From Spirosoma rhododendri (GTDB taxonomy: Bacteria > Bacteroidota > Bacteroidia > Cytophagales > Spirosomataceae), in contig NZ_CP051677.1 in the NCBI RefSeq assembly GCF_012849055.1, positions 1,936,501-2,000,500 on the forward strand: a stretch of DNA of 64,000 bases. The letters are read 5' to 3'. The notes below the pieces were generated by a model, which had not been told where the DNA came from, did no database searches, and was given only the letters and a program-made list of their open reading frames with translations. Of this stretch, positions 16,710 through 62,434 are shown piece after piece. The position numbers were made by a program, and so were the translations under genes. How positions within the stretch are numbered: position 1 is the first letter of the stretch; every line of letters begins with the position of its first letter.

Positions 16710-16800
16710 AATGAGCGAATGAGTGAATGAGCAAATGAGTGAATAGCTAATCAACGCAGTAAAAAAATCACTCATTCGCTCATTCACTCATTCGCTCATT
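16710..16800 (+). repeat. Octamer-repeat hairpin, copy 1 (AATGAGYR units)
   Basis: Four octamers on the left (16710-16742) form a 33-bp inverted repeat with 16768-16800, one mismatch, 25-nt loop. It begins 2 nt after the E1 stop and ends 8 nt before the nuoI start. Confidence 0.9.
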
Positions 16801-16808
16801 CAACTCGA

Positions 16809-18392
16809 ATGGCGTATTTTCAGGATATAAAGCGGGGGATTCAGACGTCGGTTAAGGGGCTGAGCCTGACGCTGCGGCACCTGCGCAACGCGACCAAACG
16901 ACGGTCGGCGGTGGGGGTTGCCAGCGACAATTATTTCGATCTACAGACGGGGCTCGTTACGCTGGAATACCCGCACGAGCAACTGCCCATTCCCGACAAT
17001 GGCCGTTACCGGCTTCACAACGAAATCGACGATTGCATTGTCTGTGATAAATGCGCCAAAGTCTGTCCCGTCGACTGCATTACAATTGATGCCATCAAAG
17101 CAACGGAGGAAGTAGGACGGGCGTCTGACGGGTCACCGATCCGTCTGTATGCGGCTACGTTCGATATCGACATGGCAAAGTGCTGCTACTGCGGTCTGTG
17201 CACGGTCGTCTGCCCGACGGAGTGCCTGACGATGGACAAGAAGTTCGATTATAGCGAATTTGAATTGGGCAAGCTGACGTATCACTACGCGGACCTGACA
17301 CCAACCGAAGCCGACGAAAAGCGGGCGTTGTACGAGCAGTTTGTTCAGGAAAAAGAAGCGCAGAAAGCGGCTGCGGCAGCCGCGAAGAAAGCTGCCACGT
17401 CAGCGGAAACGCCCGCCGAACCAGCCAAACGCCCGGCGTTCCGCCCAACGGCAAAACCCGCTACCCCCGTTTCGCCGGACGAGAACTCAGCCGGTGGGGC
17501 TATCGAGCATCCGCTGACCGACGCGACGCCAACTGAGATGGAGCAGATCGCGCAGGGTGGATTGGAAACTACGAAAAAACCAACCTTCCAGCCGACTCGC
17601 AAACCGACGGTTCCGCCCGCCCCCATCGAACCCGACGCACAGGCTAACGTAACGGAAGAGGAAAAACCCGCGTCGGCACCAGCGGCCGCGAAACCGGCAT
17701 TCCGCCCGTCGATGAAACCCGCATCGGCGACACCACCGGCCGATAAGCCGGAAGGCATTGAGGTACCGGCTACCCCTGCGCCCAAACCGGCTGGCTTCCG
17801 ACCAACAATGAAACCAGCGGCTGCAACGTCGGCCGACGAGCCGAAGCAACCCGCTGATGAGGTAACTGATGCTCCGCAGGAGTCTGCAAAACCGAAGCCT
17901 GTCTTCCACCCGACAATGAAACCGGCGGCCGCTCCGCCTGCTGAGCCAGCAAGTGAGCCGGTAACCGACGCAGTACCGGAGGCCCCAAAGCCTAAGCCCG
18001 CGTTTCGGCCGACGATGAAGCCAGCGACTGTTCCGTCGGCAGATCAGGCTACTGATAATGACGCCGACAAGCCCGCCGTGCCGGTCGAGAAGAAACCTGC
18101 GTTTCGTCCAACGATGAAACCGAAGCCAGCGGGTGACGCGCTAACTGATGCGGCAGTGTCTCAAGACAAAACGCCGTCGGTTGATGAGGAAAAACCGGTT
18201 GCGCCAGCCGTAGCAAAGCCAGCGGGTTTTCGGCCCACGATGAAACCGGCTGTGCCGCCCACGGCTACGCCGGATGAACAGACTGTGCCGGAAACAAAAG
18301 CTGAACTCCCGGAAGAGCCGCCCAAAGCAAAACCGGCATTCCGCCCGACAATGAAGCCGAAGCCCAAACCTGACGAGGGCGAATCGGCCTAG
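16809..18392 (+). CDS. nuoI: NADH-quinone oxidoreductase subunit I-like ferredoxin with long repetitive C-terminal tail
   Basis: The first 180 residues are a NuoI-type protein: an N-terminal amphipathic stretch, then two 4Fe-4S motifs at Cys76-79-82-86 (CIVCDKCAKVCP) and Cys125-128-131-135 (CCYCGLCTVVCP), which pass electrons from NADH dehydrogenase toward quinone. Residues about 185-527 are a Lys/Pro/Ala/Thr-rich, probably disordered extension with nine variants of a PAFRPTMKP unit separated by acidic spacers (residues TPADEP-like). Usual NuoI is 150-220 residues, so the tail is exceptional. nuoJ follows 43 nt later. The reading frame is intact throughout the tail. Confidence 0.88.
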   Translation: MAYFQDIKRGIQTSVKGLSLTLRHLRNATKRRSAVGVASDNYFDLQTGLVTLEYPHEQLPIPDNGRYRLHNEIDDCIVCDKCAKVCPVDCITIDAIKATEEVGRASDGSPIRLYAATFDIDMAKCCYCGLCTVVCPTECLTMDKKFDYSEFELGKLTYHYADLTPTEADEKRALYEQFVQEKEAQKAAAAAAKKAATSAETPAEPAKRPAFRPTAKPATPVSPDENSAGGAIEHPLTDATPTEMEQIAQGGLETTKKPTFQPTRKPTVPPAPIEPDAQANVTEEEKPASAPAAAKPAFRPSMKPASATPPADKPEGIEVPATPAPKPAGFRPTMKPAAATSADEPKQPADEVTDAPQESAKPKPVFHPTMKPAAAPPAEPASEPVTDAVPEAPKPKPAFRPTMKPATVPSADQATDNDADKPAVPVEKKPAFRPTMKPKPAGDALTDAAVSQDKTPSVDEEKPVAPAVAKPAGFRPTMKPAVPPTATPDEQTVPETKAELPEEPPKAKPAFRPTMKPKPKPDEGESA

Positions 18393-18435
18393 CTTCCGGC
18401 GTCTTTCCCACGTCTATACTCTATCCTATAAAGTA

Positions 18436-18972
18436 GTGATTCAGCTCGCTTTCTACGGCTTTTCGGCGCTTACCCTCTTCGGTGCACTGGCTGTGTTGTT
18501 TACCCGCAACGTACTGTATGCCGCCTTTTTCCTGTTGCTCACCCTGCTGGGGGTTGCCGCGTTGTTTGTACTGGCAAGCGCCGACTTTCTGGCTATTGCC
18601 CAGATCATGATCTACGTCGGTGGGGTGCTGGTGCTGGTAATTTTCGGCGTGATGCTTACCCACAAAACCGAACCGGCAGCCTCCATCAGCAGCCAGACGG
18701 CGAACCGGATACCGTCGCTGAATCGGGTAGGGGCGGGTCTTGCGGGACTCGCCGTAGCGGGTGGGCTGTTCGTGGCGTTGTACACGCTGCTGGCACGGGC
18801 TAATTTTCCGTTGCTCAACGAGCCAGTAGGCTGGCAATCAACGATCAATACGATTGGTCGGCAGCTGATGACTGATTATGTCGTACCGTTTGAAATAGCG
18901 GGTGTGCTGTTATTGGCTGCGCTGGTTGGGGCAACATACCTTGCCGCTCGCGGGCAGGCGGCTAATCAATAG
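18436..18972 (+). CDS. nuoJ: NADH-quinone oxidoreductase subunit J
   Basis: A 178-residue membrane protein with five hydrophobic segments and the family signatures LFTRNVLYAAFFLLLTLLGV, LAIAQIMIYVGGVLVLVIFG and PFEIAGVLLLAALVGATYLA, part of the proton-pumping arm of complex I. The start is GTG at 18436. nuoK and later subunits do not follow: the next gene is on the other strand and overlaps the nuoJ stop by 7 nt, so the remaining complex I genes must lie elsewhere. Confidence 0.9.
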   Translation: MIQLAFYGFSALTLFGALAVLFTRNVLYAAFFLLLTLLGVAALFVLASADFLAIAQIMIYVGGVLVLVIFGVMLTHKTEPAASISSQTANRIPSLNRVGAGLAGLAVAGGLFVALYTLLARANFPLLNEPVGWQSTINTIGRQLMTDYVVPFEIAGVLLLAALVGATYLAARGQAANQ

Positions 18973-19796
18973 TCGCCACCAGCACCACCGCCACCGAAGC
19001 TGCCTCCGCCGAAACCGCCAAAACCACCACCCCCTCCTCCGCCGAAGCCGCCCCCACCGCTTGAGCCACCCCAGCCTGAATAAGTCGACGTTGGGAAAAA
19101 GACCGGTGGGAAGAAGCCGCCACCCCGGTTGCGATTGCTGCCGCCACCACCCCGGTTACGGTTGGCGAAAATGATGAAGATAATTACGCCGATAACGATC
19201 AGTACGAAGATGCCGCCCAGTCCGCCGTCGTCATCCGAGGAGCGTGGATCGGCTTTGTACTCGCCCTGCGCCCGTTGAATAATTTCGGTCGTTGCCGCAT
19301 CCAGACCATCGAAATAGCGCTGCTCTTTAAAGGCCGGAACAATGTCGTTGGAAATGATACGCTTGGCGATAGCGTCGGGAATGGCACCTTCCAGCCCGTA
19401 GCCCGTGGCAATATACACCTTGCGGGTCTGCGTAGCCCAGGCCAGTACCAGCCCGTTATTTTTCTGGCTTTGCCCAACGCCCCACTTCCGGCCTACCTGA
19501 AACGCAAAGTCGCCGATGGGGTATGGCTCCGTGCTTTTTACGATAACGATTGTGATCTGCGTTGAGGTAGAATCGTTGTAGGCATCCAGTTTTTGCTCCA
19601 GCCGGGCGCGTTCCTGCGCGCTGAGTGCTCCCGCGAAGTCGTTGACCAGGCGGGGCGGGTTCGGGCGGGCCGGAATAACGGAATCGGCAGTCGACCCAGT
19701 CTGCGCGTAGCCAGCCAATGCCAGCAGTGCCAGACTGACCAGCAGCAGGCTACCACGGAGTAAGCGGAGGAATGAAGAATACGGACGGACGTTCAC
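18966..19796 (-). CDS. TPM-domain protein with glycine-rich C-terminus (YgcG-like)
   Basis: Signal peptide (about residues 1-31), then a TPM_phosphatase domain (RLVNDFAGALSAQERARLE, QITIVIVKSTEPYPIGDFA, NNGLVLAWATQTRKVYIATG), one transmembrane helix (FVLIVIGVIIFIIFA) and a tail of Gly-rich runs ending GGGGAGGDY. TPM proteins are membrane-anchored with a globular extracytoplasmic domain. It is the last gene of a lemA-TPM-TPM operon, 7 nt after the previous stop. Confidence 0.9.
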   Translation of the reverse strand: MNVRPYSSFLRLLRGSLLLVSLALLALAGYAQTGSTADSVIPARPNPPRLVNDFAGALSAQERARLEQKLDAYNDSTSTQITIVIVKSTEPYPIGDFAFQVGRKWGVGQSQKNNGLVLAWATQTRKVYIATGYGLEGAIPDAIAKRIISNDIVPAFKEQRYFDGLDAATTEIIQRAQGEYKADPRSSDDDGGLGGIFVLIVIGVIIFIIFANRNRGGGGSNRNRGGGFFPPVFFPTSTYSGWGGSSGGGGFGGGGGGGFGGFGGGSFGGGGAGGDY

Positions 19797-19803
19797 GGTA
19801 GGG

Positions 19804-20238
19804 CTAACTAAACGAAATATCGTCGGGGAGTTCGTTGGTATCGGTGGCCCCGTCGTACGGAAAATACTGTTTCAGCTGCTGACCGGCCCGGCCGATACCC
19901 TGCCGGAGCCCTTCCACGTATTGCGCTTTGGCGAAATAACCGCGCATCAGGTCTTTAGTGCTCACCCAGAAGTCGGCGGGAACCTGCCGGTTAATACCCT
20001 CATCGCCGACGACGGCAAACTTACGGTCTTCGTGTGCCAGGTAAAAAAGGACGCCGTTGCGCAGCCTGGTTTCATGCATACCCAACCGATGAAACACCTC
20101 AATAGCTCGCTGCACCGGATCTGGTGATGAACAGTGCGCTTCGATATGGACGCGGATTTCGCCCGACGTTGCCAGCTCGGCCTGCCGGATGGCATCGATA
20201 AGTTGTTCCTGTTCGGCGGGAGTGAAAGGCGTGGTCAT
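19804..20238 (-). CDS. TPM-domain protein
   Basis: A 144-residue cytosolic-looking TPM protein with FTPAEQEQLIDAIRQAELATSGEIRVHIEAHC, FHRLGMHETRLRNGVLFYLAHEDRKFAVVGDEGIN and a short acidic end. The ATG at 20238 is preferred over 20250, because the latter directly abuts the hairpin at 20251-20293 and leaves no room for ribosome binding. It lies between lemA and the larger TPM gene, a gene order seen in many Bacteroidota. Confidence 0.85.
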   Translation of the reverse strand: MTTPFTPAEQEQLIDAIRQAELATSGEIRVHIEAHCSSPDPVQRAIEVFHRLGMHETRLRNGVLFYLAHEDRKFAVVGDEGINRQVPADFWVSTKDLMRGYFAKAQYVEGLRQGIGRAGQQLKQYFPYDGATDTNELPDDISFS

Positions 20239-20250
20239 GGGCGAAGGCAT

Positions 20251-20293
20251 AAAACCGTCCGGACCAGCGCTGAGTGGCTATCCGGACGGTTTT
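20251..20293 (-). terminator. Hairpin after lemA (terminator or attenuator)
   Basis: A perfect 13-bp stem (AAAACCGTCCGGA / TCCGGACGGTTTT) follows the lemA stop by 5 nt on the minus strand and precedes the TPM gene, ending in T4. It may reduce expression of the two TPM genes relative to lemA. Confidence 0.75.
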
Positions 20294-20298
20294 CTAAC

Positions 20299-20880
20299 TT
20301 AAAACTGAACCGAAGGGGCGTTCTGTGCTGCCTGCGAAGCCTCGAAAAAGCCTTTCACCGGGAAGCCAAACACACCCGCGAAGATGTTGTTCGGAAACGA
20401 CCGGACCGACTGATTGTAGGTTCGAACGGCTCCATTGAAATCGTTACGCGACACCGCAATGCGGTTTTCCGTGCCTTCCAGCTGTGCCTGCAATTCCGAG
20501 AAATTCTGCGTGGCTTTCAGGTTCGGGTAGTTTTCTGCTACCGCGAGCAGCCGCGACAGCGAGCCGCTGAGCTGATCCTGAGCGGCCTGAAACTTCTGCA
20601 CGTTTTCGGGCGTCAGCTGATCGGCCGTCAGATTGATCGAGGTAGCTTTCGAGCGGGCTTCCTGCACGGCCACGAGCGTACCTTTCTCAAAATTAGCGGC
20701 CCCTTTCACGGTGTTGACCAGGTTCGGAATCAGGTCGGACCGGCGCTGATACTGCGTTTGTACCTGCGACCATTTTTCCTGTACGTTGGTATCACTGGTG
20801 ACCAGGCCGTTGTACGAACTACAGCCATACATGCCCAGAATGAGGGCAATGACAATCACGATAATGAGCGACTTTGACAT
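20299..20880 (-). CDS. lemA: LemA family protein
   Basis: A 193-residue protein with an N-terminal hydrophobic segment (IIVIVIALILGMYGCSSYN, a possible lipobox at Cys20) and the LemA helical domain: LVTSDTNVQEKWSQVQTQYQ, RRSDLIPNLVNTVKGAANFE, LLAVAENYPNLKATQNFSEL, and NRIAVSRNDFNGAVRTYN. LemA proteins are membrane-anchored helical bundles of unknown biochemical role, often linked with TPM or metalloprotease genes, as here with two TPM genes downstream. Confidence 0.92.
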   Translation of the reverse strand: MSKSLIIVIVIALILGMYGCSSYNGLVTSDTNVQEKWSQVQTQYQRRSDLIPNLVNTVKGAANFEKGTLVAVQEARSKATSINLTADQLTPENVQKFQAAQDQLSGSLSRLLAVAENYPNLKATQNFSELQAQLEGTENRIAVSRNDFNGAVRTYNQSVRSFPNNIFAGVFGFPVKGFFEASQAAQNAPSVQF

Positions 20881-20955
20881 GACGTGTGTAGATGAAATCT
20901 TTTTTGTTGGTGATAAAATTGGGTAAAACTGTGGATAAGTTCAGCAGAATCTACG

Positions 20956-22419
20956 TCAGCGGTTGAATTTGGCGTCTGTCCACCGTTCGGGCCTGATGAT
21001 CGGCATGGGGTAGTTGTCGCCGGGGTACACGCCGTAGCGTTCCAACTCAGCATTCGACAGTTCGTACAGTTTATGAATCCGGTTGGCGGGAACGTCGGCT
21101 AGTTCGGGAAGCCAGTGTTTCACATAAGCCCCCTGTTCATCGTAGCGCGTGGCCTGCGACAAAATGTTGAAGTACCGGTCTTCGCGCGGGTCATTGCCAA
21201 CACCGGCCACGTAGTTCCAGTTGCCCCAGTTGCTGCACGGGTCGTAGTCGATGAGCTGACTCTCGAAATAAGCCGCGCCCCACGTCCAGTCGATGCCGAG
21301 ATCTTTGACCAGAAAGCTGCCCACGTTCTGCCGCCCCCGGTTCGACATAAAGCCGGTGGCGTTCAGTTCGCGCATGTTCGCGTCGATAAACGGAATGCCC
21401 GTTTCGCCCATCGCCCAGCGCAAAAACAAATCGTGGTCACGACGCCAGCGTTTGGTAATGTCGTTTCGAATACCGCTGATTTTGAAGATTCGGTTGCCGA
21501 AGCGCAAGGCCACAAACCGGAAGAAATCCCGCCAGATAAGCTCGAAGATCAGCCAATAGGTCGAGTCGTTTTCGACGCGCTCGGCTTCGTAGCGTCTGAT
21601 TTCGTGGTAGATGAACCGGGGCGACAGGCAACCCAGCGCCAGCCAGGCCGAGAACTTCGATGAGTACCCTTCGCCCAGCAGGCCGTTACGTGTTTCCTTG
21701 TATGTTTTCAGCTGATCGCTGCCCCACAGGTAATGCTCCAGCCGGCCGATACCCGCTGTCTCACCACCGTGAAATGGCAACACAGCCCGCGTGTCAGACT
21801 GCTCGACACGACTGATTTCTTCGGCGGTATAGCCAAGGTCGGTCAGCGTTGGTAGTGCACCTGCTTCCTGACCTGACAGCATCGAAACCTGCTTGGGTGT
21901 AGGGGTAATCTCCCGAACTGACGCGTACTTTTCAACTTCCTTGCGAAACTGGGTGAATACATTCGGTAGCTTGGAAACCGCAAAAGGCAGGTCGCGCACG
22001 TGGTATAGCGTCGATTGCCAGATCAGGTCGAGATCAATATTCAGCGGTTTCAGTCGCTTGCTCAATTCCGATTCCAGGTCGGTTTCTTCCTGCGTGACTT
22101 CCTTGCTCGCGTAAATGGCGTCGGCACCGATTTCCTGCGCCAGCCGGGCCAGCGTCAGTGCCGGATTGCCAACGCGAATCAGCAAATCGCCCCCACGGCT
22201 GCGTAGTGATTGCCGCAGATCAGCCAGCGATTCCAGCAGGAAATTCGCCTGAAAAACACCCATTTTCCGGAAGCCGATCGACCCCAGCTCCGTAAACCAG
22301 TCTGTGTCGATCACAAAAACGGGCAGCACCGTTTCGGCGTCGGTCAGCGCGCGGGAAAAACCTTCGTTGTCGTGCAGGCGAAGGTCGTTTCGAAACCAGT
22401 AAACAATTTTTTTAGGCAT
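20956..22419 (-). CDS. Cryptochrome/photolyase, DASH type
   Basis: A 487-residue flavoprotein from the ATG at 22419 (MPKKIVYWFRNDLRLHDNEG); the frame is open to 22440 but that adds seven non-family residues. It has an N-terminal photolyase Rossmann domain and the FAD-binding domain with GEGYSSKFSAWLALGCLSPR, ELIWRDFFRF, TGIPFIDANMRELNATGFMSNRGRQNVGSF and WTWGAAYFESQLIDYDPCSNWGNW. DASH proteins repair cyclobutane dimers in single-stranded DNA using blue light. It is downstream of the DUF547 gene in the same direction. Confidence 0.92.
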   Translation of the reverse strand: MPKKIVYWFRNDLRLHDNEGFSRALTDAETVLPVFVIDTDWFTELGSIGFRKMGVFQANFLLESLADLRQSLRSRGGDLLIRVGNPALTLARLAQEIGADAIYASKEVTQEETDLESELSKRLKPLNIDLDLIWQSTLYHVRDLPFAVSKLPNVFTQFRKEVEKYASVREITPTPKQVSMLSGQEAGALPTLTDLGYTAEEISRVEQSDTRAVLPFHGGETAGIGRLEHYLWGSDQLKTYKETRNGLLGEGYSSKFSAWLALGCLSPRFIYHEIRRYEAERVENDSTYWLIFELIWRDFFRFVALRFGNRIFKISGIRNDITKRWRRDHDLFLRWAMGETGIPFIDANMRELNATGFMSNRGRQNVGSFLVKDLGIDWTWGAAYFESQLIDYDPCSNWGNWNYVAGVGNDPREDRYFNILSQATRYDEQGAYVKHWLPELADVPANRIHKLYELSNAELERYGVYPGDNYPMPIIRPERWTDAKFNR

Positions 22420-22527
22420 ACATAACCGTGTCCAACCCATCTGGACCCTGCTCTATGAACAGCCGTCGGATGTTATTGTTTGTCCGCCTGACACCCGAAT
22501 TGGATTGGCGTAAGGGCCGTGGTTGGC

Positions 22528-23280
22528 TCACTGCTCGTTAAGCCGCCAGTCGTAGTCCAGATAAGAAACGGGCGTGTCGGCGTTGATTTTTGTTTGGGAG
22601 TATCGGTTCACCCAATAAACGACCGACCGGCTGTTTTTCTCAAAATCACGGTTGTACCAGTCAAACAGCTTCGACAAACTGGCGCGGCCGGGCGTTACGG
22701 CGTTCTTCGTCGGGTCGTTCAGAAAGCCAACGCCCTGTTCGTTAAGTTGCCCGGCAAGCCGGGCCGGGGTGTAGGCTTCGTTGCGCAGACGGGGGCAGGA
22801 GCGGGCGGCACACACCAGCGCGAAATGAATACGGGGTTCGGTAAACTGCTTGCGTAATGTGCCGTGCTCAATATTGTCGAGGCTCATTTTCTGGCCGCCA
22901 ATCGTGAAAAACTTCTCGGTCCACGGCGTGTTAACAAACGGAATCTGAACCGCTGGGCCGATGTCTTTGATACTTTTCAACGGATAGTGGTTCAGGATCA
23001 GCCGTACTGTAAACGCATTGTACGCATTGATCCAGTACGCCATTTTTTCATTGACCGACCAGCTTGCGGCCGGTGGCGTACGGCTCAGTAAATCGAGGTA
23101 TTGGTTGAGGAGTGCTTCGTCGCGCTTCAGCCCCTTGTAGTCAACTAATCCCCGTCCGTCGACGTGTTTCTTCAGCAAACCGTCCCAGATTGCGTGGCTG
23201 GGTGGCGAGCCGGCCTGTGCAAGCAGTGGCAAGATCATAAACAGAAGAATGAGCAGGCGGGGCAACATAAACAAGCGCAT
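22528..23280 (-). CDS. DUF547 domain protein, exported
   Basis: A 250-residue protein with a signal peptide (cleavage after LLAQA) and the DUF547 core: GLVDYKGL, NEKMAYWINAYNAFTVRLIL, SLDNIEHGTLRKQF, IHFALVCAARSCPRLRNEAY. The conserved Cys and His hint at an enzyme with a papain-like arrangement, but no function is established. It is divergent from the SDR gene at 23313 with 32 nt between starts and is followed by the photolyase. Confidence 0.9.
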   Translation of the reverse strand: MRLFMLPRLLILLFMILPLLAQAGSPPSHAIWDGLLKKHVDGRGLVDYKGLKRDEALLNQYLDLLSRTPPAASWSVNEKMAYWINAYNAFTVRLILNHYPLKSIKDIGPAVQIPFVNTPWTEKFFTIGGQKMSLDNIEHGTLRKQFTEPRIHFALVCAARSCPRLRNEAYTPARLAGQLNEQGVGFLNDPTKNAVTPGRASLSKLFDWYNRDFEKNSRSVVYWVNRYSQTKINADTPVSYLDYDWRLNEQ

Positions 23281-23312
23281 CGGGTCAATTTTGGCTTAAA
23301 ACTACACACTAC

Positions 23313-24101
23313 ATGAATCTCGATTTAACAAACAGAACGGCATTGGTCTGCGGCAGCACACAGGGTATTGGCCGCGCGTCGGCGGTAGAACTGGCAAAAC
23401 TGGGAGCTAATGTGGTGCTGATGGCCCGCAATGAGGAAACGCTGCAACAAACGCTACAGACACTCGACACCGGCAGCGGTCAGACCCACCAGTACCTTGT
23501 CGCCGACTTCAGTCAGCCGGGTGCCGTTGCTGAAGTCATACAGCGTTATCTGGCGAATGGTGGCGAGATACAGGTACTTATCAACAACACGGGTGGCCCG
23601 GCGGGTGGCCCGTTAGTCGATGCAACGGCGGATGCGTTTGTGCAGACGTTCCAGGCTCATTTGCTGAACAATCAGGCACTGGTGCAGGCCGTATTGCCGG
23701 GTATGAAGCGAGTGGGCTACGGGCGCATCATAAACATCATCAGCACATCGGTCAAGCAGCCGATTGTGGGGCTGGGGGTGTCGAACACAATTCGGGGGGC
23801 GGTGGCACAGTGGAGCAAAACGCTGTCGCTGGAGATTGCCCGGTCTGGCGTTACTGTCAACAATGTGCTGCCCGGCTACACGCAGACGGCCCGGCTGACG
23901 TCGGTGATTCGTATGCAGGCGGAAAACAGTGGGCAATCGGAAAAGGAGGTAGCTGAAAAAATGCAGCGCGACATACCAACCGGGCGGTTCGTAACAGCGG
24001 AAGAAGTCGCTGCGGCCGTAGCGTTTCTGTGCACACCAGCCGCAGCATCGATCAATGGCATCAACGTACCCGTCGACGGCGGACGAACGGGCAGTCTGTA
24101 A
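23313..24101 (+). CDS. SDR family oxidoreductase lacking the catalytic Tyr-Lys pair
   Basis: A 262-residue Rossmann protein with the cofactor loop CGSTQGIGRASAVELAKLG, LINNTGGPAGGP in place of NNAG, and the C-terminal LPGYTQTARL and PVDGGRTGSL. The usual Tyr-x-x-x-Lys is replaced by Ser-Asn-Thr-Ile-Arg (in GVSNTIRGAVAQWSKTL). A Tyr-less group of SDRs with this SN-x-x-R pattern is widespread, so it is probably a real subfamily and not a damaged gene, but its reaction is uncertain. The stop is 1 nt from the convergent response-regulator stop. Confidence 0.85.
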   Translation: MNLDLTNRTALVCGSTQGIGRASAVELAKLGANVVLMARNEETLQQTLQTLDTGSGQTHQYLVADFSQPGAVAEVIQRYLANGGEIQVLINNTGGPAGGPLVDATADAFVQTFQAHLLNNQALVQAVLPGMKRVGYGRIINIISTSVKQPIVGLGVSNTIRGAVAQWSKTLSLEIARSGVTVNNVLPGYTQTARLTSVIRMQAENSGQSEKEVAEKMQRDIPTGRFVTAEEVAAAVAFLCTPAAASINGINVPVDGGRTGSL

Positions 24102-24102
24102 G

Positions 24103-24771: not shown

Positions 24772-24835
24772 AACGGTTAGACGGGAAGGGGAAATACGCT
24801 AACGCGTTAGTCGCACTACGGACGGCAAACGCAAA

Positions 24836-24843: not shown

Positions 24844-24855
24844 ACGACTTTCCCC

Positions 24856-27177: not shown

Positions 27178-28038
<861 letters not shown>

Positions 28039-28045: not shown

Positions 28046-28126
28046 TAAAGAGTGAAAGAGTAAAAGAGCGAAAGAGCGAAGGCGCCGGATGGGCACTCTT
28101 TCACTCTTTCGCTCTTTCGCTCTTTA
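28046..28126 (-). repeat. Octamer-repeat hairpin, copy 2 (AAAGAGYG units)
   Basis: Left arm 28046-28078 and right arm 28095-28126 are each four octamers and pair imperfectly (differences are transitions). The right arm includes the rfbB stop codon at 28124-28126, and the other end is 8 nt from the rfbA start. Confidence 0.85.
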
Positions 28127-29200
28127 TCGATTTGTGTACATGCCTTTGTAGTAGGTCTGGTAGGCGCCGGAGGTGACGTTGTCGAGCCACTCCTGATTGG
28201 CGAGGAACCAGTCTACGGTTTTTTCGAGACCTTCTTCAAACTGAAGCGATGGTTCCCAGCCCAGTTCGGTCATGATCTTGTTGGCGTCGATGGCGTAGCG
28301 CAGGTCGTGCCCGGCGCGGTCGGTTACGTAGGTAATCAGCTGCGCCGACGTGCCTTCGGGGCGACCCAGCTTGCGGTCCATCGTGGCGCAGAGCAGATGT
28401 ACGAGGTCGATGTTTTTCCACTCGTTGAAGCCGCCGATGTTGTAGGTTTCGCCCAGCACACCTTTGTGGAATACCGTATCGATAGCCCGCGCGTGATCGA
28501 CTACGAACAGCCAGTCGCGCACGTTTTCGCCTTTGCCGTAGACGGGCAGGGGCTTGTTCGTCTGAATGTTGTGAATCATCAGCGGAATCAGCTTCTCAGG
28601 GAAGTGATTCGGGCCGTAGTTATTCGAGCAGTTCGACAGTACGACCGGCATTTTGTACGTATTGCCGTAGGCCCGTACGAAGTGATCCGAAGCCGCTTTC
28701 GATGCTGAGTATGGCGATTGTGGATCGTACGACGTCGTTTCAAGAAAAAACTCGTCGGGGTTGTGCAGCGAACCGTACACCTCGTCGGTCGAAACGTGGT
28801 AGAACCGCTTTCCTTCGAAGGCGTGCGCGCCCCCGGCCGTCTCGCTGTTTTGCCAGCTGTTCTTGGCCGCGTTGAGCAGATTAACCGTACCGACAACGTT
28901 GGTCAGCACAAACGACATGGGGTCGGTGATTGACCGGTCGACGTGCGATTCGGCTGCGAGATGGATGACGCCGTCGAACGGGATTTCGGCAAACATGTCC
29001 TCCAGAAACTTCGCGTCGGTAATATCGCCTTTCACGAACGTATAGTTCGGAGCATCCTCGATGTCTGCCAGATTGGCCAGATTGCCGGCGTAGGTCAGCT
29101 TGTCGAGGTTATAAATTTGATACTCCGGGTACTTGGTAACGAAAAGCCGGACAACGTGCGATCCGATAAAGCCGGCCCCGCCGGTAATCAATAGTTTCAT
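28124..29200 (-). CDS. rfbB: dTDP-glucose 4,6-dehydratase
   Basis: From the ATG at 29200 (MKLLITGGAGFIGSHVVRLF) the protein is 358 residues, normal for the family; the frame is open to 29251 but that adds unrelated residues. It has the NAD-binding glycine motif, STDEVYG, the YSASKAASDHFVRAY catalytic Tyr-Lys and NNYGPNHFPEKLIPL. It converts dTDP-glucose to dTDP-4-keto-6-deoxyglucose for deoxysugar synthesis. It lies between galE and rfbA. Confidence 0.97.
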   Translation of the reverse strand: MKLLITGGAGFIGSHVVRLFVTKYPEYQIYNLDKLTYAGNLANLADIEDAPNYTFVKGDITDAKFLEDMFAEIPFDGVIHLAAESHVDRSITDPMSFVLTNVVGTVNLLNAAKNSWQNSETAGGAHAFEGKRFYHVSTDEVYGSLHNPDEFFLETTSYDPQSPYSASKAASDHFVRAYGNTYKMPVVLSNCSNNYGPNHFPEKLIPLMIHNIQTNKPLPVYGKGENVRDWLFVVDHARAIDTVFHKGVLGETYNIGGFNEWKNIDLVHLLCATMDRKLGRPEGTSAQLITYVTDRAGHDLRYAIDANKIMTELGWEPSLQFEEGLEKTVDWFLANQEWLDNVTSGAYQTYYKGMYTNR

Positions 29201-29250
29201 GGTTTTCTGCTTGTACGGTTGTAGCGTATTCTCATTACCGGTTGGTTGCA

Positions 29251-30300
29251 CTAGGATGCTGCAACTTTAGCACCAATTTTCTGCTGCCAGCGCCAGGCAT
29301 CGCGCAGAGCCTCGGCCAGCGAGTGGGTTGTGTGCCAGTTCAGTACACGATTCGACTTCGATACGTCGGCATAAACCTGCTCGACGTCGCCGGGTCGGCG
29401 CGGGCCGATGCTGTAGTTGACCGATACGCCGGTCGCTTCCTCAAATGTTTTGATGACGTTCAGGACGGTTTCGCCCCGCCCGGTGCCGATGTTGATAATG
29501 TCATAACTGGCGTCGGCGTTGGTTTCGCTGAGTTTGCGCAGTGCCTGCACGTGAGCCTCGGCTAGGTCAACGACGTGGATATAATCGCGGACACAGGTAC
29601 CGTCGGGCGTGTTATAGTCATCGCCATAAACGGTCAGGCTGGCGCGCATACCGGCGGCTGTCTGCGTAATGAACGGAACCAGATTGGCGGGTACGCCCAG
29701 CGGTAATTCGCCAATTTCGGCCGAGGGATGTGCCCCAATCGGGTTGAAGTACCGCAGAGCCAGTGCCTTGATCGGCAGATTGGCCCGAACGGCATCCCGG
29801 ATCATATCTTCCCCGATCGCTTTGGTGTTGCCGTAGGGCGACTGTGCCGGTAGCCGGGGCGTTTCTTCCGTAACGGGCAGGTGTTCGGGCTGCCCGTAGA
29901 CCGTACACGACGACGAAAATACCAGGTTGTGTACCTTGTATTCATTCATCAGATCGAGCAGTAGCAGCAGCGAACCGAGGTTGTTCTGATAATAGTCCAG
30001 CGGTTTGGCCACCGATTCACCAACGGCTTTGTAGGCCGCGAAATGAATGACGCCGGTGAGGGCTTCCCGCTCGAAAATGGCCTGCATGGCCGCCCGATCG
30101 TTGCAGTTGGCCTGGTAGAAAGGAACGTCGCGGCCCAGAATAGCGCGAAGCCCGTTCAGTACCGAAGCTAACGAGTTAGAGAGATCATCAACAATAACTG
30201 GTTCAAAACCAGCTTCAACTAGTGCAACGACGGTATGCGAGCCAATAAAGCCTGCGCCACCCGTTACCAAAATCTTCGGAGAATGTGTTGCGGAAGTCAA
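29251..30300 (-). CDS. galE: UDP-glucose 4-epimerase
   Basis: A 349-residue SDR epimerase: ILVTGGAGFIGSHTVVALVE, VIHFAAYKAVGESV, SSSCTVYGQPEHLPV, YGNTKAIGEDM (catalytic Tyr-Lys) and YFNPIGAHPSAEIGE. The start appears to be TTG at 30300, as no ATG lies upstream in frame close by. It supplies UDP-galactose for surface polysaccharide and opens the sugar-nucleotide operon. A TACTTTTG box lies 55 nt upstream. Confidence 0.95.
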   Translation of the reverse strand: MTSATHSPKILVTGGAGFIGSHTVVALVEAGFEPVIVDDLSNSLASVLNGLRAILGRDVPFYQANCNDRAAMQAIFEREALTGVIHFAAYKAVGESVAKPLDYYQNNLGSLLLLLDLMNEYKVHNLVFSSSCTVYGQPEHLPVTEETPRLPAQSPYGNTKAIGEDMIRDAVRANLPIKALALRYFNPIGAHPSAEIGELPLGVPANLVPFITQTAAGMRASLTVYGDDYNTPDGTCVRDYIHVVDLAEAHVQALRKLSETNADASYDIINIGTGRGETVLNVIKTFEEATGVSVNYSIGPRRPGDVEQVYADVSKSNRVLNWHTTHSLAEALRDAWRWQQKIGAKVAAS

Positions 30301-35128: not shown

Positions 35129-35287
35129 TGTAGCAACATAGGTACTTAAGTACTGTTGACGTAAAATCAATTCTGACCTTGAAAAGTTCGTGTGTGCTGC
35201 GGGTTCGGCCACGCCGTTTGACGGTAGCCTGCTTCCGCGTCTGTTTAAGCGCACATGCGTAGTTTTGCAGTTGTTAACGACGAATAC

Positions 35288-36550
35288 ATGGGTCTGGTTG
35301 CACAACTATATTCAACGGGAATTCGACTGTACCCGGCCGTGCTGCGGCTGGCTGCTCCGTTTCACGCCAAAGCCCGTCGGTGGCTGGCGGGGCAGCATAA
35401 CCTGCTCGATACCATAGCCGACAAACTGGGCAGCGATGCCGATACTCGCCCGATTGTCTGGTTTCATGCGGCATCGCTGGGTGAGTTCGAGCAGGGGCGT
35501 CCCGTCATGGAAGCGTTTCGGGCGGCTTACCCGCAGCACCGCATCCTGCTGACGTTTTTTTCACCATCGGGCTACGACGTGCGCAAGGACTACGACGGTG
35601 CCGACTACGTGTTTTACCTGCCGATCGATACTCCCGCCAACGCGCGTCGGTTTGTTCAACTGGTGAAGCCGGAGCTGGTGTTTTTTATCAAATACGAGTT
35701 CTGGGCCAACTACCTGCGCGAACTGCACCGGGCAAACGTTCCGGTCGTGTCGTTCTCCGCCATCTTCCGTTCCGACCAACTGTTTTTCAAGCCGTACGGC
35801 GAATTTTACCGGCAGATGCTTCGGCAATTCAATCACTTACTGGTTCAGAATCAGGAGTCAGTCGATTTACTGCGGAGCATCGGTATCACGAATGTAACGC
35901 TGGCTGGAGACACGCGTTTCGACCGGGTGGCGCAGACCGTTGCAACGATACGGGATATCCCGATTGCCAATGCGTTCAAGGCCGGGCAGCCGCTGCTGGT
36001 GGTGGGCAGTGCGTGGCCGCTGGATATGGACGTGCTGATTCCGTTTATCAACCAGTTCGACAAACCGCTGAAAGTCATCGTAGCTCCCCACGAAATCGAC
36101 GGTAACACAATTGCCGACTGGCAAAAACGGCTGACCCGCCCGTCTGTACGGTTTTCGCAGACAAACGAGATTGACGTGTTACGGGCCGACATCCTGTTTA
36201 TCGACAACGTCGGGATGCTGTCGTCGCTGTATCAGTACGGTGAGTTTGCGTTCATTGGTGGGGCGTTCCGCGAGGGGTTGCACAACATCCTGGAAGCGGC
36301 CACTTTCGGCATGCCCATTTTCTTTGGTCCCGTTTACGACAAGTTTCAGGAAGCCGTCGACCTCGTTCAGGAAGGCGGTGCCTTCCCGGTCAGTACTACC
36401 GAAGAACTACAAACGACTTTCGCGCAACAGTATAACAATCGCCAAAAAGCCGCCCAAATCACCCGCTTGTACGTGCAGCGGAACATCGGCGCAACCGCGC
36501 GGGTTATGGACGTAGCAGCGAAAATAAAGAGCGAAAGAGCGAACGAATGA
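35288..36550 (+). CDS. waaA: 3-deoxy-D-manno-octulosonic acid (Kdo) transferase
   Basis: A 420-residue GT-B glycosyltransferase (MGLVAQLYSTGIRLYPAVLR). It has the N-terminal membrane-associated helix, the catalytic Glu motif HAASLGEFEQGRPV, TFFSPSGYDVRK, KYEFWANYLRELH, VLAGDTRFDR-like TLAGDTRFDRV, and FIGGAFREGLHNILEAATFG. It adds Kdo to lipid A precursors. The last residues (KIKSERANE) are encoded within an octamer hairpin that overlaps the stop codon. Confidence 0.95.
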   Translation: MGLVAQLYSTGIRLYPAVLRLAAPFHAKARRWLAGQHNLLDTIADKLGSDADTRPIVWFHAASLGEFEQGRPVMEAFRAAYPQHRILLTFFSPSGYDVRKDYDGADYVFYLPIDTPANARRFVQLVKPELVFFIKYEFWANYLRELHRANVPVVSFSAIFRSDQLFFKPYGEFYRQMLRQFNHLLVQNQESVDLLRSIGITNVTLAGDTRFDRVAQTVATIRDIPIANAFKAGQPLLVVGSAWPLDMDVLIPFINQFDKPLKVIVAPHEIDGNTIADWQKRLTRPSVRFSQTNEIDVLRADILFIDNVGMLSSLYQYGEFAFIGGAFREGLHNILEAATFGMPIFFGPVYDKFQEAVDLVQEGGAFPVSTTEELQTTFAQQYNNRQKAAQITRLYVQRNIGATARVMDVAAKIKSERANE

Positions 36551-36640
36551 AAGAGCGAAATGTCGGCTCAAGCATTCTGGACGGCTTTCACTTATTCGCT
36601 CTTTCAATTCCATTGCGGCACTCCTTCATTCTTTCACTCG
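36527..36640 (+). repeat. Octamer-repeat region, copy 3 (AAAGAGCG units, degenerate)
   Basis: AAAGAGCG octamers at 36527-36560 oppose TCGCTCTTTC-type units at 36595-36605 and TTCTTTCACTCG at 36629-36640. Pairing is weaker than in the other copies. It covers the waaA stop codon and runs to 2 nt before the rsgA start. Confidence 0.7.
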
Positions 36641-36641
36641 T

Positions 36642-37570
36642 TTGTCAAACACCGGTTTAATTCTCCGCTCAACAGGTTCCTGGTACGACGTTCGCAACGC
36701 CGACGGTCATATCTATCAGGGGCGGCTGAAGGGTAAATTCAAGATCAAGGGGCTCAAAGTAACTAACCCGATTGCGGTGGGCGACCGGGTGACGTATGAG
36801 GTTGAAGATGAGGTCGAAAATACGGTCATCATCACCGATATTCTCCCCCGCGACAACTATATCGTCCGGCAGTCGGTACACAAAACGGCGCACGGCCACA
36901 TGCTGGCGACCAACCTCGATCAGGCTGTCTTACTGGCTACGCTGACGCTCCCCCGCACCTCGCTCGGCTTCATCGACCGCTTTCTGGTATCGGCCGAGTC
37001 GTTCCGCATTCCAACGGCAATCGTGTTCAACAAAACAGACGTGCTGAACGAAGAAGGACTGGCCTACCAGCAGGAAATCATGGACATGTACGAGCAGATC
37101 GGCTACACCTGTCTGGCGACGTCGGCTATCGAAGGCGAGGGTGTCGACGCGTTCCGGAATTTGCTCGACCATAAAGTAACGTTGCTATCGGGGCATTCGG
37201 GGTGGGGAAATCGTCGCTCGTCAACGCCATTTCGCCGGATCTGAACCTTCGTACTAACGAGATTTCGACCTTCGCCAACAAGGGTGTTCACACGACGACC
37301 TTCGCCGAAATGTTTGAACTCGCTCCTGACACCTACATCATCGACACGCCGGGCATTAAAGAGCTTGGGTTGATCGACACGTCGAAGGAAGAAATCGGGC
37401 ACTATTTTCCCGAAATGCGCGAGCGGCTGAATCAATGCCGCTTTCACAACTGCCTGCACATCAATGAGCCGGGTTGCGCCGTGAAAGATGCAGTGGGGGA
37501 GGGCGAAATCGCCGAAAGCCGCTACATGAGCTACCTCAGCATGATGGAAGGGGGCGACAACCGCCGGTAA
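36642..37570 (+). CDS. rsgA: Ribosome small subunit GTPase RsgA (frameshifted)
   Basis: The protein has the N-terminal OB domain (GLILRSTGSWYDVRN, RLKGKFKIKGLKVTNPIAVG), the circularly permuted GTPase motifs (FNKTDVLN, LATSAIEGEGVD, GHSGVGKSSLVNAISPDLN, DTPGIKELGL) and a Zn-binding end (CRFHNCLHINEPGC). RsgA matures the 30S subunit. The start seems to be TTG at 36642. The frame is cut in the P-loop at 37199-37202 (four Gs); a fifth G gives the perfect GHSGVGKSS. As RsgA is highly conserved, a sequence error is the likeliest cause. Confidence 0.92.
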
Positions 37571-53616: not shown

Positions 53617-53693
53617 ATTGAATGGGAGAATGATTGAGTGATTGAATCGGCCTGACAAAATTATTCAATCACTCAATCATTCTATCATTCAAT
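53617..53693 (-). repeat. Octamer-repeat hairpin, copy 4 (ATTGARTG units)
   Basis: Arms 53617-53647 and 53663-53693 pair over 31 bp with 2 mismatches and a 15-nt loop. It abuts the rimK stop codon (53693-53695) and ends 8 nt from the next start (53609). Confidence 0.9.
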
Positions 53694-54601
53694 TAAACCC
53701 CCACCATGTCGCTTTCGTCGCCGAGGATTTTTTCTTCGATGTAGGCGATGATGTGCCCGGCGACGTTGATGCCGGTGGCTAGTTCGATGCCTTCCAGACC
53801 GGGCGATGAGTTGACTTCGAGTACCAGCGGACCCCGGTCGGAGGGGAGCATGTCGACACCGGCGACTTTGAGGCCCAGCGCCCGGCTCGCGTTAATAGCG
53901 GTTTGTTCTTCCTGTTCCGTCAGGATAACGGGAATGGCATTGCCACCCCGGTGCAGGTTCGAGCGAAACTCGCCGTCGATACCCTGCCGACGCATTGCTC
54001 CGACGACTTTGCCGCCTACCACAAACGCCCGGATGTCGGACCCCCGCGCTTCGGCGATAAACTCCTGCACCAGCACGTGTTTTTTCAGACCGTAAAACGC
54101 TTCGATGGTCGAGCGGGCGGCTTTGGCGGTTTCAGCCAGCACAACGCCGATTCCCTGCGTACCTTCCAGTAGTTTGATAACCACCGGTGGCCCGCCGACC
54201 AACTCGATCAGGCGATTGACATTACCGTTTTTAGGGTGGTTGGCGATAACCGTTTTGGGCAGACCAACCCCCGCTTTCGACAGCACCTGCAAGCTGCGCA
54301 GCTTGTTACGCGCCCGCATGATGGCCTGCGATTTGGCCGTTGTAAAGACTTTCATCATCTCAAACTGCCGGACCACGGCGCAACCGTAGTCGGTTACCGA
54401 CGCACCAATGCGGGGGATGATCGCGTCGAACTGGTCAAGCTCCTGCCCGTCGAGGAGCACCGTCGGGCGGCCCCCTTCGATCATGACGTGGCAGTTGAGA
54501 TGATTGACAATGACGCCTTCGTGGTTGCGTTCCCTGACTGCCGTCAGCAGCCGCTGCGTCGAATACAGGTCGGGATTTGTTGATAAAATAGCAATGCGCA
54601 T
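53693..54601 (-). CDS. rimK: RimK family alpha-L-glutamate ligase
   Basis: A 302-residue ATP-grasp enzyme from the ATG at 54601 ([20 protein letters not shown]); the frame is open to 54817 but that part is not RimK. Motifs: [56 protein letters not shown]. RimK adds Glu to ribosomal protein S6 or related targets. It is followed, with 64 nt, by its typical partner, a Zn protease-like protein. Confidence 0.95.
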
Positions 54602-54665
54602 ACAGCGATCAGTTGTCGGAAGTGAGCAGGTGGTGAGCCATGTAGTTCTATCGGACAGCGTTTTG

Positions 54666-55121
54666 CTATGGGTTAGGCAGTGTCGGCGACTGACCGAGTT
54701 TAGCCTGATAAGAAAGGTCTTTTTGAGACACGTCGACGATGAATCGGTTACGCAGAATCTTACGACCCAGCAGGATCGGGTAACGCATTTGCTCGCGGTC
54801 GGCCAGCGTAAATTCAACCCGGATCGTGCGGTCGAACAGTTTCAGGCGTGTTTTGATGACGTAGCGCAGTTCTGATACGCCAAACGAGTTGCGAATCATA
54901 CGCTGACTGAACTGACTGCTGTAAAACGGCCGGGACTCCTGTCCGGTTTCGCCGATAAGCCAGAATCGTAGCTTCTGCCCGTTTTTTGTCCGTACCAGCC
55001 GCACATCTTTGCAGTGCAGCGCCGATGTGTAAGCACCCGTATCAACTTTAGCGTACGCATCAAACAGGCCAAGATCGGGTAAATCAATCCGGTCTGTCAT
55101 ACCGATGATCTGCTTGGCCAT
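54666..55121 (-). CDS. RimB-like ATP-dependent Zn protease (PF05618-type)
   Basis: A 151-residue retropepsin-like protein: [35 protein letters not shown] (Asp-Thr-Gly active site), [24 protein letters not shown]. It is typically encoded with rimK and trims or regulates poly-glutamate tails; the catalytic Asp-Thr-Gly is present. It is upstream of rimK on the same strand. Confidence 0.9.
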
Positions 55122-60811: not shown

Positions 60812-60952
60812 AACTGATAAACGAAAACGGCTTTCTACCGGACGTTGACAAACCGCTAATAGTTCGCTAACCAATTGTTCCGTTTTGGGTTTTCGTAGAG
60901 ACGCGAACGAACTGGTGTCCCGGCCGTTGCGCGCCAGCAAATTCATACAACC

Positions 60953-62347
60953 ATGCTTGAACAACTTCGACAGTTTCCGGCCTTCGCCACTATCCCCGAT
61001 GAACAGCTTCAGTGGCTGGTCGACAATGGGGAAGAAAAGCACATTGATGCCGGAACCGTGCTGGCGAAGCCCGGCGAATCAATCGACCAGTTGGTGTTGC
61101 TGCTCGACGGACGGATTGTGATCGATACGGGACAGAACGGACCCGACGATGACATCGTCACCTACGAACCGCACAGTATCATGGGCGTGCTGCCTTACTC
61201 GCGCATGACCAGCACCCCCAACCGAATGCTGGTCGAAAAAACGTCGCATATTCTGCAAGTTCACCGCGACAAGCTGCGGGACATGGCCTGTCTGCATTAC
61301 GAACTTACCGAGGTACTGGTGCAGCAGATGACCAACCGGGTACGGAGTTTTACGCGCTACACGCAGCAGGAAGACAAAATGGCGTCGCTGGGTCGCTTAT
61401 CGGCGGGACTGGCGCACGAACTGAATAATCCGGTGGCGGCCATTGTCCGATCGGCCGAGACGATGAAGGCTCATTTGCGGGCCACGCCCGACGCTTTCAA
61501 GCAAATCATGCACCTGCAACTGCCCGACGAAAAAGTCGACACGGTGAATGAGTTGCTGTTCAAAAAACTTGATCAGAAAGCGCCCCAGCTCAGTTTGCTG
61601 GAACGCAGCAGCCGCGAAGACGACTTGGCTGACTGGCTCGACGATTATGGGGCCGATACGGGTAGTCTGGACCTCGTCGGGCCGCTCATTGACTTCAATT
61701 TCACAACCGACGATCTGAACTGGATGCTCGATCAGGTTGGGCCGGATAACATTGGCGGGGTAACCAACTGGGTTGTCAATAACCTGGTTACGCAATCGCT
61801 GGTACGTGATATCAGCGATGCGTCGGAGCGAATCGGTACGCTGGTCGGGTCGATTAAGAACTACACCCACATGGACCGGGGCGCAGGCAAAACGACGGTC
61901 GATCTGGGCGAAGGTATTCGCAGTACGCTGACGTTGCTGGACCACAAGGTTAAGGGCAGTAATGTCTCGGTCAGGCTCAATCTGGCCGACGATCTGCCCG
62001 TAGTCTGCGGCTGGCCGGGCGAACTGAATCAGGTGTGGACCAACCTGATCGACAACGCTGTCGACGCTATGCCCGATGGGGGTGAGCTGACCATCTCCAG
62101 CGAAGTCGAGCATCATAGCGATGGCCTTACCTTCGTGCTGACGAAGATCGCCGACACCGGCACTGGTATTCCCGACGATATTCGCGACTCAATCTTCGAC
62201 CCTTTCTTCACGACAAAGGAAATCGGCAAGGGCACCGGACTTGGGCTCGACATCGTGCAGGGTATCGTCAGTCATCACAATGGCTCAATAAAAGTTGATT
62301 CCCAACCCGGCCACACCGAGTTTAGTGTTTGCTTACCAGTTGGTTGA
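60953..62347 (+). CDS. Sensor histidine kinase with N-terminal cyclic-nucleotide-binding domain
   Basis: A 464-residue soluble kinase: a CNB domain ([40 protein letters not shown], residues 1-115), HisKA with phosphorylated His155 in [16 protein letters not shown], and HATPase motifs [26 protein letters not shown] and [11 protein letters not shown]. No membrane segments. It precedes a receiver-flavoreductase fusion with an octamer hairpin between, which suggests that the two form a phosphorelay. Confidence 0.92.
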
Positions 62348-62354
62348 ATGATTA

Positions 62355-62434
62355 AATGATTGAGTGATTGAATGTGTTGCTCAAATTATCGCGACGGCGA
62401 ATCATTTATTCTACCATTCAATCACTCAATCATT
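62355..62434 (+). repeat. Octamer-repeat hairpin, copy 5 (ATTGARTG units)
   Basis: A perfect 20-bp core (62355-62374 and 62415-62434) with weaker flanks, 40-nt loop. It starts at the kinase stop codon (62345-62347) and ends 13 nt before the next start. Its core is shared with copy 4. Confidence 0.88.

What the first reader, a model, noticed from the sequence alone, without database searches (positions are those of the whole stretch)
16710..62434. Octamer-repeat hairpins tied to stop codons between co-directional genes
Five intergenic elements (16710-16800, 28046-28126, 36527-36640, 53617-53693, 62355-62434) are made of purine-rich octamers (AATGAGYG, AAAGAGYG, ATTGARTG) arranged as inverted repeats. 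All five sit between two genes read in the same direction, and all touch or overlap the stop codon of the upstream gene and end 2-13 nt before the next start. Strand of the genes differs (three plus, two minus), so this is a positional rule relative to transcription. Three different sequence variants obeying one architecture suggest a mobile or selected intercistronic RNA element acting in mRNA stability, partial termination or translational insulation.
Basis: partly seen in the sequence, partly recalled or inferred. Interest (0 to 1): 0.75.

Follow-up and report, generated by a model that had tools for sequence, protein, structure and literature searches.

The report
Stop-codon hairpin elements with octamer arms
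Between neighbouring genes of this bacterium sit dozens of look-alike DNA hairpins built of eight-letter repeats, mostly right at a gene's stop codon, and they look like stripped-down copies of a little-known kind of element that elsewhere carries a small protein gene of unknown job.

Summary
The five hairpins are real and belong to a large family: 52 arm-loop-arm hairpins in 2.0 Mb of the host chromosome, an estimated 130 or so genome-wide. The rule is "at a stop codon", not "between co-directional genes": 40 co-directional, 10 convergent, 1 divergent pair; 50 of 60 flanking stops lie within 3 nt of, or inside, an arm. AAAGAG- and ATTGAATG-type arms share a loop core (GGCTGACGC) in both orientations, so they look like one dispersed family. 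Such arms also flank genes of the 23S-rRNA-IVP/four-helix-bundle family (PF05635), in this genome, its genus and, by record title, nine phyla. At one conserved junction two IVP subfamilies carry two arm classes; arm and protein sequence vary together (Mantel r 0.66, 0 of 2000 permutations); one species keeps only an IVP remnant. Best reading: the hairpins are IVP-less members of an intercistronic element family, an mRNA counterpart of rRNA intervening sequences. Movement was not observed; RNase III release is inferred. A nuclease-fold family (PF13366) shows similar architecture. Nine paper searches listed no description of this.

The parts
16710..16800 (+). Element 1: 33-nt purine arm of AATGAGYG octamers, 25-nt loop, complementary arm (32 of 33 matched)
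   Evidence: z -11.8
28046..28126 (-). Element 2: AAAGAGYG arms (31 nt, 27 matched without gaps), 19-nt loop; supplies the TAA stop of the rmlB-like gene; 7 nt before the rmlA-like ATG
   Evidence: (z -9.3); loop like that of C1:1449349
36527..36640 (+). Element 3: degenerate AAAGAGCG/AATGAAAG arrays, best stem 21 nt (18 matched); Kdo-transferase ORF reads 26 nt into the 5' array
   Evidence: (z -1.9)
53617..53693 (-). Element 4: ATTGARTG arms (31 nt, 29 matched), 15-nt loop with promoter-like TAATTTTG (by eye); begins in the RimK TAA stop
   Evidence: (z -9.8)
62355..62434 (+). Element 5: ATTGAGTG arms (20 of 20 matched), 40-nt loop; the kinase TGA stop (62345-62347) lies in the outer part of the array
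   Evidence: (z -6.7)
28124..29251 (-). Upstream gene, GDP-mannose 4,6-dehydratase/epimerase family (rmlB-like)
27178..28038 (-). Downstream gene, nucleotidyl transferase (rmlA-like)
35255..36550 (+). Upstream gene, Kdo transferase family
36642..37244 (+). Downstream gene, RsgA (TTG start; ORF short, possibly frameshifted)
53693..54817 (-). Upstream gene, RimK-like ATP-grasp
60953..62347 (+). Upstream gene, histidine kinase-like

Best explanation
The hairpins are IVP-less (non-autonomous) members of a family of dispersed elements that settle at translation stop codons, mostly in short intercistronic gaps. The fuller form is: stop codon - tandem 7-8-mer arm (often an arm-loop-arm hairpin) - gene for a 23S-rRNA-IVP-type four-helix-bundle protein - complementary arm - next start codon. 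Shown: shared arms, shared loop core, stop anchoring, arm-protein co-variation, a remnant intermediate, empty stop/start junctions in relatives, a protein under purifying selection. Inferred: that they spread as selfish DNA (copying or gene conversion between copies, in either orientation); that the transcript's hairpin is cut by RNase III, as shown for rRNA intervening sequences, so that insertion between cistrons or in tolerant rRNA loops does little harm; and that IVP acts on its own arms.
For: Pattern 673 hits vs 3 control. 52 hairpins in 2.0 Mb, median stem 31 bp, 92.7% complementary. Loop core at 8/9 or better in 21 of 52 vs 0.2 by shuffling, with both arm types (the motif was chosen after looking at the loops). 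Loop-pair similarity 71 of 1225 vs 5.3 expected, including window 28046 with C1:1449349 (some of it is octamer sequence left in the loops). Stop distance 3 nt or less in 50 of 60; leftover gap median 8.5 vs 99 nt. IVP gene with such arms in this genome; inverted flanks at score 16 or more in 40 of 76 IVP loci vs 6 of 293 control ORFs; of the 25 of these with both neighbours co-directional, 22 have the arm within -20 to +15 nt of the upstream stop. Arm class goes with IVP subfamily at the same site. Remnant in L283. Two IVP copies with like arms at two junctions of one genome (L280, L295). dN/dS median 0.08 in 20 usable of 101 pairs. Empty junctions: 3 of 26 at YqeY-CvpA, 8 of 28 at CvpA-RlmN.
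Against: No transposition caught in the act; no clear target-site duplication (weak excess at 2-3 nt). This genome has only two PF05635 genes, one with octamer arms, and none was seen with AAAGAG arms. Co-variation of arm and protein shows that they travel together, not that one recognises the other; host relatedness was not controlled. In 6 of 76 IVP loci both neighbours run against the IVP gene and in 20 they differ from each other (crude ORF calls), so transcription of the IVP with the operon is not universal. 10 of 76 loci show no inverted flanks by this measure (z below 1). At rmlB-rmlA 30 of 30 loci have a 60-123-nt spacer and 23 of 30 a clear hairpin, none empty: this looks like selection or a hot spot. 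At two sites arms flank an old promoter-like core (by eye), odd for simple insertion. None of the window's own five loops has the core at 8/9. Own arms pair only moderately better than arms of other elements (0.93 vs 0.86; own partner best in 13 of 45).
Confidence: 0.6

Rival explanations
1. Selected RNA elements: intercistronic hairpins that stabilise the upstream mRNA 3' end or uncouple translation, kept by selection while their sequence drifts.
For: Position conserved across the genus with no empty rmlB-rmlA junction in 30 loci; four of five window hairpins strongly stable as RNA; complementarity kept while units change.
Against: Loop core has no strand bias (10/10); convergent pairs carry them too; several junctions lack them in relatives; copy families and IVP cargo need dispersal.
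Confidence: 0.2
2. In-situ neutral evolution: slippage makes octamer arrays and template switching copies them into inverted arms; no mobile element needed.
For: Arms flank conserved promoter-like cores at two sites while arms differ between species (by eye); arms fill the gap between coding regions; a loop looks inverted between L216 and L217 (by eye).
Against: Same units and loop core at unlinked loci; arm type goes with an IVP gene.
Confidence: 0.12
3. Bidirectional transcription terminators.
For: Long hairpins of all families together are concentrated in convergent gaps (105 of 219 vs 153 of 957 co-directional).
Against: Octamer hairpins are not concentrated in convergent gaps (10 of 51); the five window elements have no T tract after the stem (by eye); neither element in 16000-29500 is in the terminator-like list (whose loop limit of 8 makes this weak); they sit inside likely operons.
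Confidence: 0.05
4. REP/BIME-type repeats moved by a RAYT.
For: Short palindromes near gene ends; one Y1_Tnp protein in the genome.
Against: GTAG at an outer end in only 2 of 52; median stem 31 bp of octamers; in the sampled 2.0 Mb the Y1_Tnp gene (C1:971581) has no octamer hairpin within about 18 kb.
Confidence: 0.03

Closest known systems
Intervening sequences (IVS) of bacterial 23S/16S rRNA with an IVP/S23 ORF
   Same: Four-helix-bundle ORF between inverted repeats that form a stem (PMC4990558: 28-bp stem around an S23p ORF, RNase III release)
   Different: Here between protein genes at stop codons, arms are 7-8-mer arrays whose unit changes, and nearly all copies in this genome have no ORF
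REP/BIME repeats and RAYT (GTAG and CGTC families, PMC3733652 passages)
   Same: Dispersed palindromes, often downstream of coding regions, presumed non-autonomous
   Different: GTAG end in only 2 of 52, long octamer stems, no linked RAYT; partner gene is IVP
MITEs (recalled)
   Same: Short inverted-repeat elements without ORF beside a fuller ORF-bearing form
   Different: No transposase known, no clear target-site duplication
Intergenic heptamer arrays (TAACTGA repeats of Beggiatoaceae, PMC4679880)
   Same: Short tandem repeats near start and stop codons, with stops in all frames
   Different: Direct repeats, most near start codons; no IVP link (the words four helix and intervening do not occur)
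DGR accessory protein Avd
   Same: PF05635 resembles Avd (PMC10053308 passage)
   Different: No reverse transcriptase domain PF00078 found in this genome

Membership tests
rRNA intervening sequence (IVS) | lies within a 16S or 23S rRNA gene | tested here: not met
   The five window elements lie between protein ORFs and so does the L002 IVP; no Rfam family, rRNA included, reaches gathering score in the window
rRNA intervening sequence (IVS) | ORF of the IVP/S23 family between complementary arms | tested here: met
   For fuller members only: PF05635 E 2.8e-13 at L002, PDB 2rld E 7.9e-16, arms; the five window hairpins have no such ORF
rRNA intervening sequence (IVS) | cut out by RNase III | not testable with these tools
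   Shown in vitro for the Coxiella IVS (PMC4990558); inferred here
REP/RAYT | GTAG at one end | tested here: not met
   2 of 52 within 8 nt outside or 4 nt inside an outer end
REP/RAYT | RAYT gene flanked by the repeats | tested here: not met
   The single Y1_Tnp match is not near octamer hairpins
MITE | terminal inverted repeats shared with an autonomous element | tested here: inconclusive
   Arms shared with IVP elements, but IVP is no known transposase
MITE | target-site duplication | tested here: inconclusive
   At the ends: 2 nt 8 of 52 vs 3.3 by chance, 3 nt 3 vs 0.8, 4 nt 1 vs 0.2; no consistent duplication
Intrinsic terminator | GC-rich stem, short loop, T tract | tested here: not met
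   Window sequences; no call at the two elements in 16000-29500; the other 47 hairpins were not tested for a T tract
Diversity-generating retroelement | reverse transcriptase with Avd | tested here: not met
   No PF00078 match in the genome

The most novel reading that the evidence does not exclude
A widespread class of intercistronic mobile elements exists whose mobility partner is the IVP four-helix-bundle protein (or, in a sister class, a PD-(D/E)XK_3 protein). It recognises its own tandem 7-8-mer arms, targets stop/start junctions of operons, and relies on RNase III cutting the transcript so that operons tolerate it. Old hairpins are overwritten by new families, giving conserved position with changing sequence.
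Probability: 0.35. Interest if true: 0.9.

Novelty: new variant of a known kind. Interest (0 to 1): 0.77.

Why it matters
PMC4990558 says that S23/IVP proteins have no known function and that the role and origin of rRNA intervening sequences remain unclear, mobility being one theory. Finding the same protein family with matching inverted arms between protein genes, in nine phyla by record title, makes the question testable outside rRNA, with dozens of hairpins in this genome. It also offers a plainer reading of IVP genes reported inside cas loci (PMC3936711; IVP is also in a figure key of PMC10910872): insertion at an operon junction rather than a CRISPR role; I did not test this. Conserved position with changing sequence is itself an unusual pattern.

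Tried and rejected
Reverse-transcriptase or DGR mobilisation: no PF00078 in the genome. RAYT: one unlinked Y1_Tnp, GTAG ends in 2 of 52. Known RNA family: none at gathering score in the window. Target-site duplication: weak excess only. Sense-strand RNA motif in the loop: no strand bias. Nine of ten allowed paper searches listed no paper on IVP genes with octamer arms between genes; one search listed 15 of 714 and one search listed 12 of 161, and only openly licensed papers are held. Gene calls in the 2.0 Mb come from my own simple caller: stops are firm, starts rough, some genes missed; 10,000 bases there read N. Neighbour directions of the 76 IVP loci come from a cruder longest-ORF rule.
Full report
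1. Observation. Each is an array of purine-rich octamers, a loop, and the reverse complement of the array. Folded as RNA in the sense of the genes they give z-scores of -11.8, -9.3, -1.9, -9.8 and -6.7; the third (36527-36640) is degenerate. Stops lie in or at the array in four of five; at the first, only an alternative frame ends at the arm, while the E1 ORF ends 60 nt earlier. Next starts follow after 1-13 nt.

2. Scale. The window lies in an unnamed 6.05-Mb genome; the closest named IVP loci are a Spirosomataceae MAG and Fibrisoma. The pattern GAWDGARYGAWDGARYGAWDGA with up to 2 mismatches hits 673 times, against 3 for the reversed pattern. I took C1:1-2,000,000, called genes with a simple coding-score program and clustered octamer hits at up to 3 mismatches: 61 clusters, 52 of the form arm-loop-arm. 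The other 9, with hits on one strand only (several a single hit at 3 mismatches), were dropped from the counts. Median stem 31 bp, 92.7% matched, 14 of 52 perfect, median loop 21.5 nt. Of the 673 genome-wide hits, 261 fall in the sample, which suggests about 130 hairpins genome-wide; an estimate.

3. Positional rule. Of 51 hairpins with both neighbours called, 40 lie between co-directional, 10 between convergent and 1 between divergent genes. Divergent gaps are 16% of pairs and 24% of intergenic bases (binomial p 0.0016 and 1e-5). Of 60 flanking stop codons, 50 lie within 3 nt of, or inside, the element and 55 within -30 to +15 nt. What remains of the gap after removing the element has a median of 8.5 nt, against 99 nt in co-directional gaps without elements (all). 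In the 10 co-directional cases with 20 nt or more left over, the element is nearer the stop in 7 and nearer the start in 3. So the anchor is the stop codon, not co-direction. ORFs read at most 26 nt into the element; its purine arm has stops in all frames.

4. One family. Many loops share a core, GGCTGACGC: at least 8 of 9 positions in 21 of 52, against 0.2 expected by shuffling (the motif was picked after seeing the loops). It occurs with AAAGAGYG and ATTGAATG arms. Among co-directional cases at 7/9 or better with a clear direction it lies sense 10 times and antisense 10 times. Loop pairs scoring 10 or more number 71 of 1225, against 5.3 expected; unlinked examples are window 28046 with C1:1449349, and C1:244852 with C1:760791 (octamer bits left in loops contribute). 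Of the five window loops none has the core at 8/9 and one has 7/9. Hairpins with GTTTAAGG-type arms carry a similar loop (by eye).

5. The fuller form. PF05635 (23S rRNA IVP, four-helix bundle) has two matches in the genome. L002 lies between two co-directional genes: stop, octamer hairpin with AGCTGACGC in the loop, IVP ORF, octamer arm, next ATG. The second, L001, has an in-frame stop and is flanked by GTTTGAGG-type repeats. A scan of one genome for each of 84,980 species with the L002 protein found 182 relatives; the best 80 loci were kept. Four had too little usable flank. In the other 76 the best inverted match between 220-nt flanks has a median score of 16.75, against 8.5 for 293 control ORFs from the same loci; 40 of 76 against 6 of 293 reach 16; 52 of 76 exceed z 5 and 10 are below z 1. 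By record title (phylum names mine) the 40 come from nine phyla: Bacteroidota, Sumerlaeota, Bipolaricaulota, Chloroflexota, Acidobacteriota, Calditrichota, Nitrospirota, Pseudomonadota, Planctomycetota. By crude ORF of 76 have both neighbours in the IVP direction, 6 both against it, 20 mixed and 4 unknown; of 25 same-direction loci at score 16 or more, 22 have the arm within -20 to +15 nt of the upstream stop and 15 within 20 nt of the next start. Testing only periods 7 and 8 in the downstream flank, period 8 fits better in 86 and 7 in 23 of 109; median self-match 0.63 against 0.41 shuffled, 29 of 109 against 0 reach 0.7.

6. Arms and protein belong together. At the junction of L002, 30 loci of the genus were read: 6 carry IVP subfamily I (75% or more identical to L002, itself included) with ATTGAATG-class arms, 7 carry another subfamily (44-49%) with AAAGAG/AATGAG-class arms (classes by eye), 1 (L283) keeps only the C-terminal remnant of the second kind between hairpins, 15 have other spacers without IVP, 1 (L291) was not resolved. 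L033 reads the same as L274; Fibrisoma L034 is a further subfamily-I-like case (71%). Over 29 elements of the genus, arm 4-mer similarity tracks protein identity (r 0.66, 0 of 2000 permutations, also when stratified by site; site 1 n=13 r 0.67, site 2 n=16 r 0.76); over 78 loci of many phyla r is 0.21, 0 of 2000 (7 of 116 rows dropped first for short protein or flank; host relatedness not controlled). This shows that arm and gene travel as a unit, not yet that one recognises the other. IVP dN/dS has a median of 0.08 in 20 of 101 pairs; the other 81 had dS missing, 0.1 or less, or 2 or more.

7. Turnover at fixed places. Clear hairpin means score 10 or more. At YqeY-CvpA 19 of 26 relatives have one, with different units; three have only 20 nt, with an overlapping stop and start by eye. 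At CvpA-RlmN 8 of 24 scored have one (4 of 28 with gaps over 400 nt not scored), and 8 of 28 are overlapping or 5 nt apart. At rmlB-rmlA, all 30 loci taken (of 36 genomes searched) have a 60-123-nt spacer and 23 a clear hairpin; units differ between species. At RimK, 21 of 29 have one, and many loops keep a promoter-like TAAYTTTG/TAACTTAG core, as does the divergent PdxJ-YqeY gap (by eye, promoter motif recalled; YqeY, CvpA, RlmN and PdxJ are my names, not from a call). In L310 an AAAGAG hairpin seems nested in the ends of an older AATGAG one (by eye). Conserved place with changing sequence fits repeated overwriting of old copies, but also selection for some hairpin.

8. A sister class. PF13366 (PD-(D/E)XK_3, GxxExxY) was checked because I recalled such repeats near these genes. 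29 of 36 genomes of the genus have it. Of 30 loci, 3 failed my frame check; of the other 27 (one, L390, has a stop inside), 20 have inverted flanks at score 16 or more and 25 exceed z 3 against shuffles, with units such as ACAGGATT, CACGGAGA and CGCAAAGA (by eye). The host has one at C1:83293 (L369).

9. Mechanism. Most likely these are dispersed, largely selfish elements, tolerated because a hairpin between cistrons, like one in a spare rRNA loop, can be cut by RNase III without loss of either product. RNase III cutting was shown in vitro for the Coxiella IVS (PMC4990558; abstract, introduction and passages seen) and is inferred here. Lack of strand bias and of a reverse transcriptase domain point to DNA-level spread, perhaps gene conversion between copies. 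What IVP does is open.

10. Literature. IVS as mobile elements is an old, unproven idea (PMC4990558). PMC11270868 (passages) reports IVP ORFs in rRNA insertions of CPR bacteria. PMC3936711 (passages) reports 18 IVP genes in cas loci, one between Cmr3 and Cmr2 genes; an operon-junction insertion would explain this, which I did not test. PMC4679880 (abstract, one section, passages) describes heptamer arrays near starts and stops without IVP. PMC3733652 (passages) describes GTAG/CGTC REPs. My nine searches listed no account of the present elements.

Noticed in passing
C1:1-2,000,000 of the host (L113-L212): Long hairpins of any sequence (score 16 or more) occur in 105 of 219 convergent, 153 of 957 co-directional and 8 of 190 divergent gaps scanned, against 1 of 600 coding controls; 43 of the 266 are octamer hairpins, several other repeat families are among the rest.
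   Followed up: partly
L364-L393; own copy L369 (C1:83293-83640): PF13366 (PD-(D/E)XK_3, GxxExxY) genes often have inverted tandem-repeat flanks, like IVP genes.
   Followed up: partly
window 14241-16708: E1-dehydrogenase ORF stops at 16649 while another frame continues to the octamer element; possible frameshift.
   Followed up: no
window 36642-37570: RsgA ORF is short (200 aa, 36642-37244) and overlaps a further ORF 37202-37570; possible frameshift.
   Followed up: no
L255-L257: At CvpA-RlmN three species carry a gap of about 600-700 nt with what looks like an ORF (a Uma2-type nuclease from memory, not tested); L257 also has an octamer-like hairpin beside it.
   Followed up: no
L216, L217: Loop sequence of the hairpin after the same gene looks inverted between two species, as expected for recombination between inverted arms (by eye).
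   Followed up: no
L001 (C1:4903004-4903318): Second IVP gene of the host has an in-frame TAG and is flanked by another repeat type (GTTTGAGG-like); similar units also form stand-alone hairpins.
   Followed up: partly
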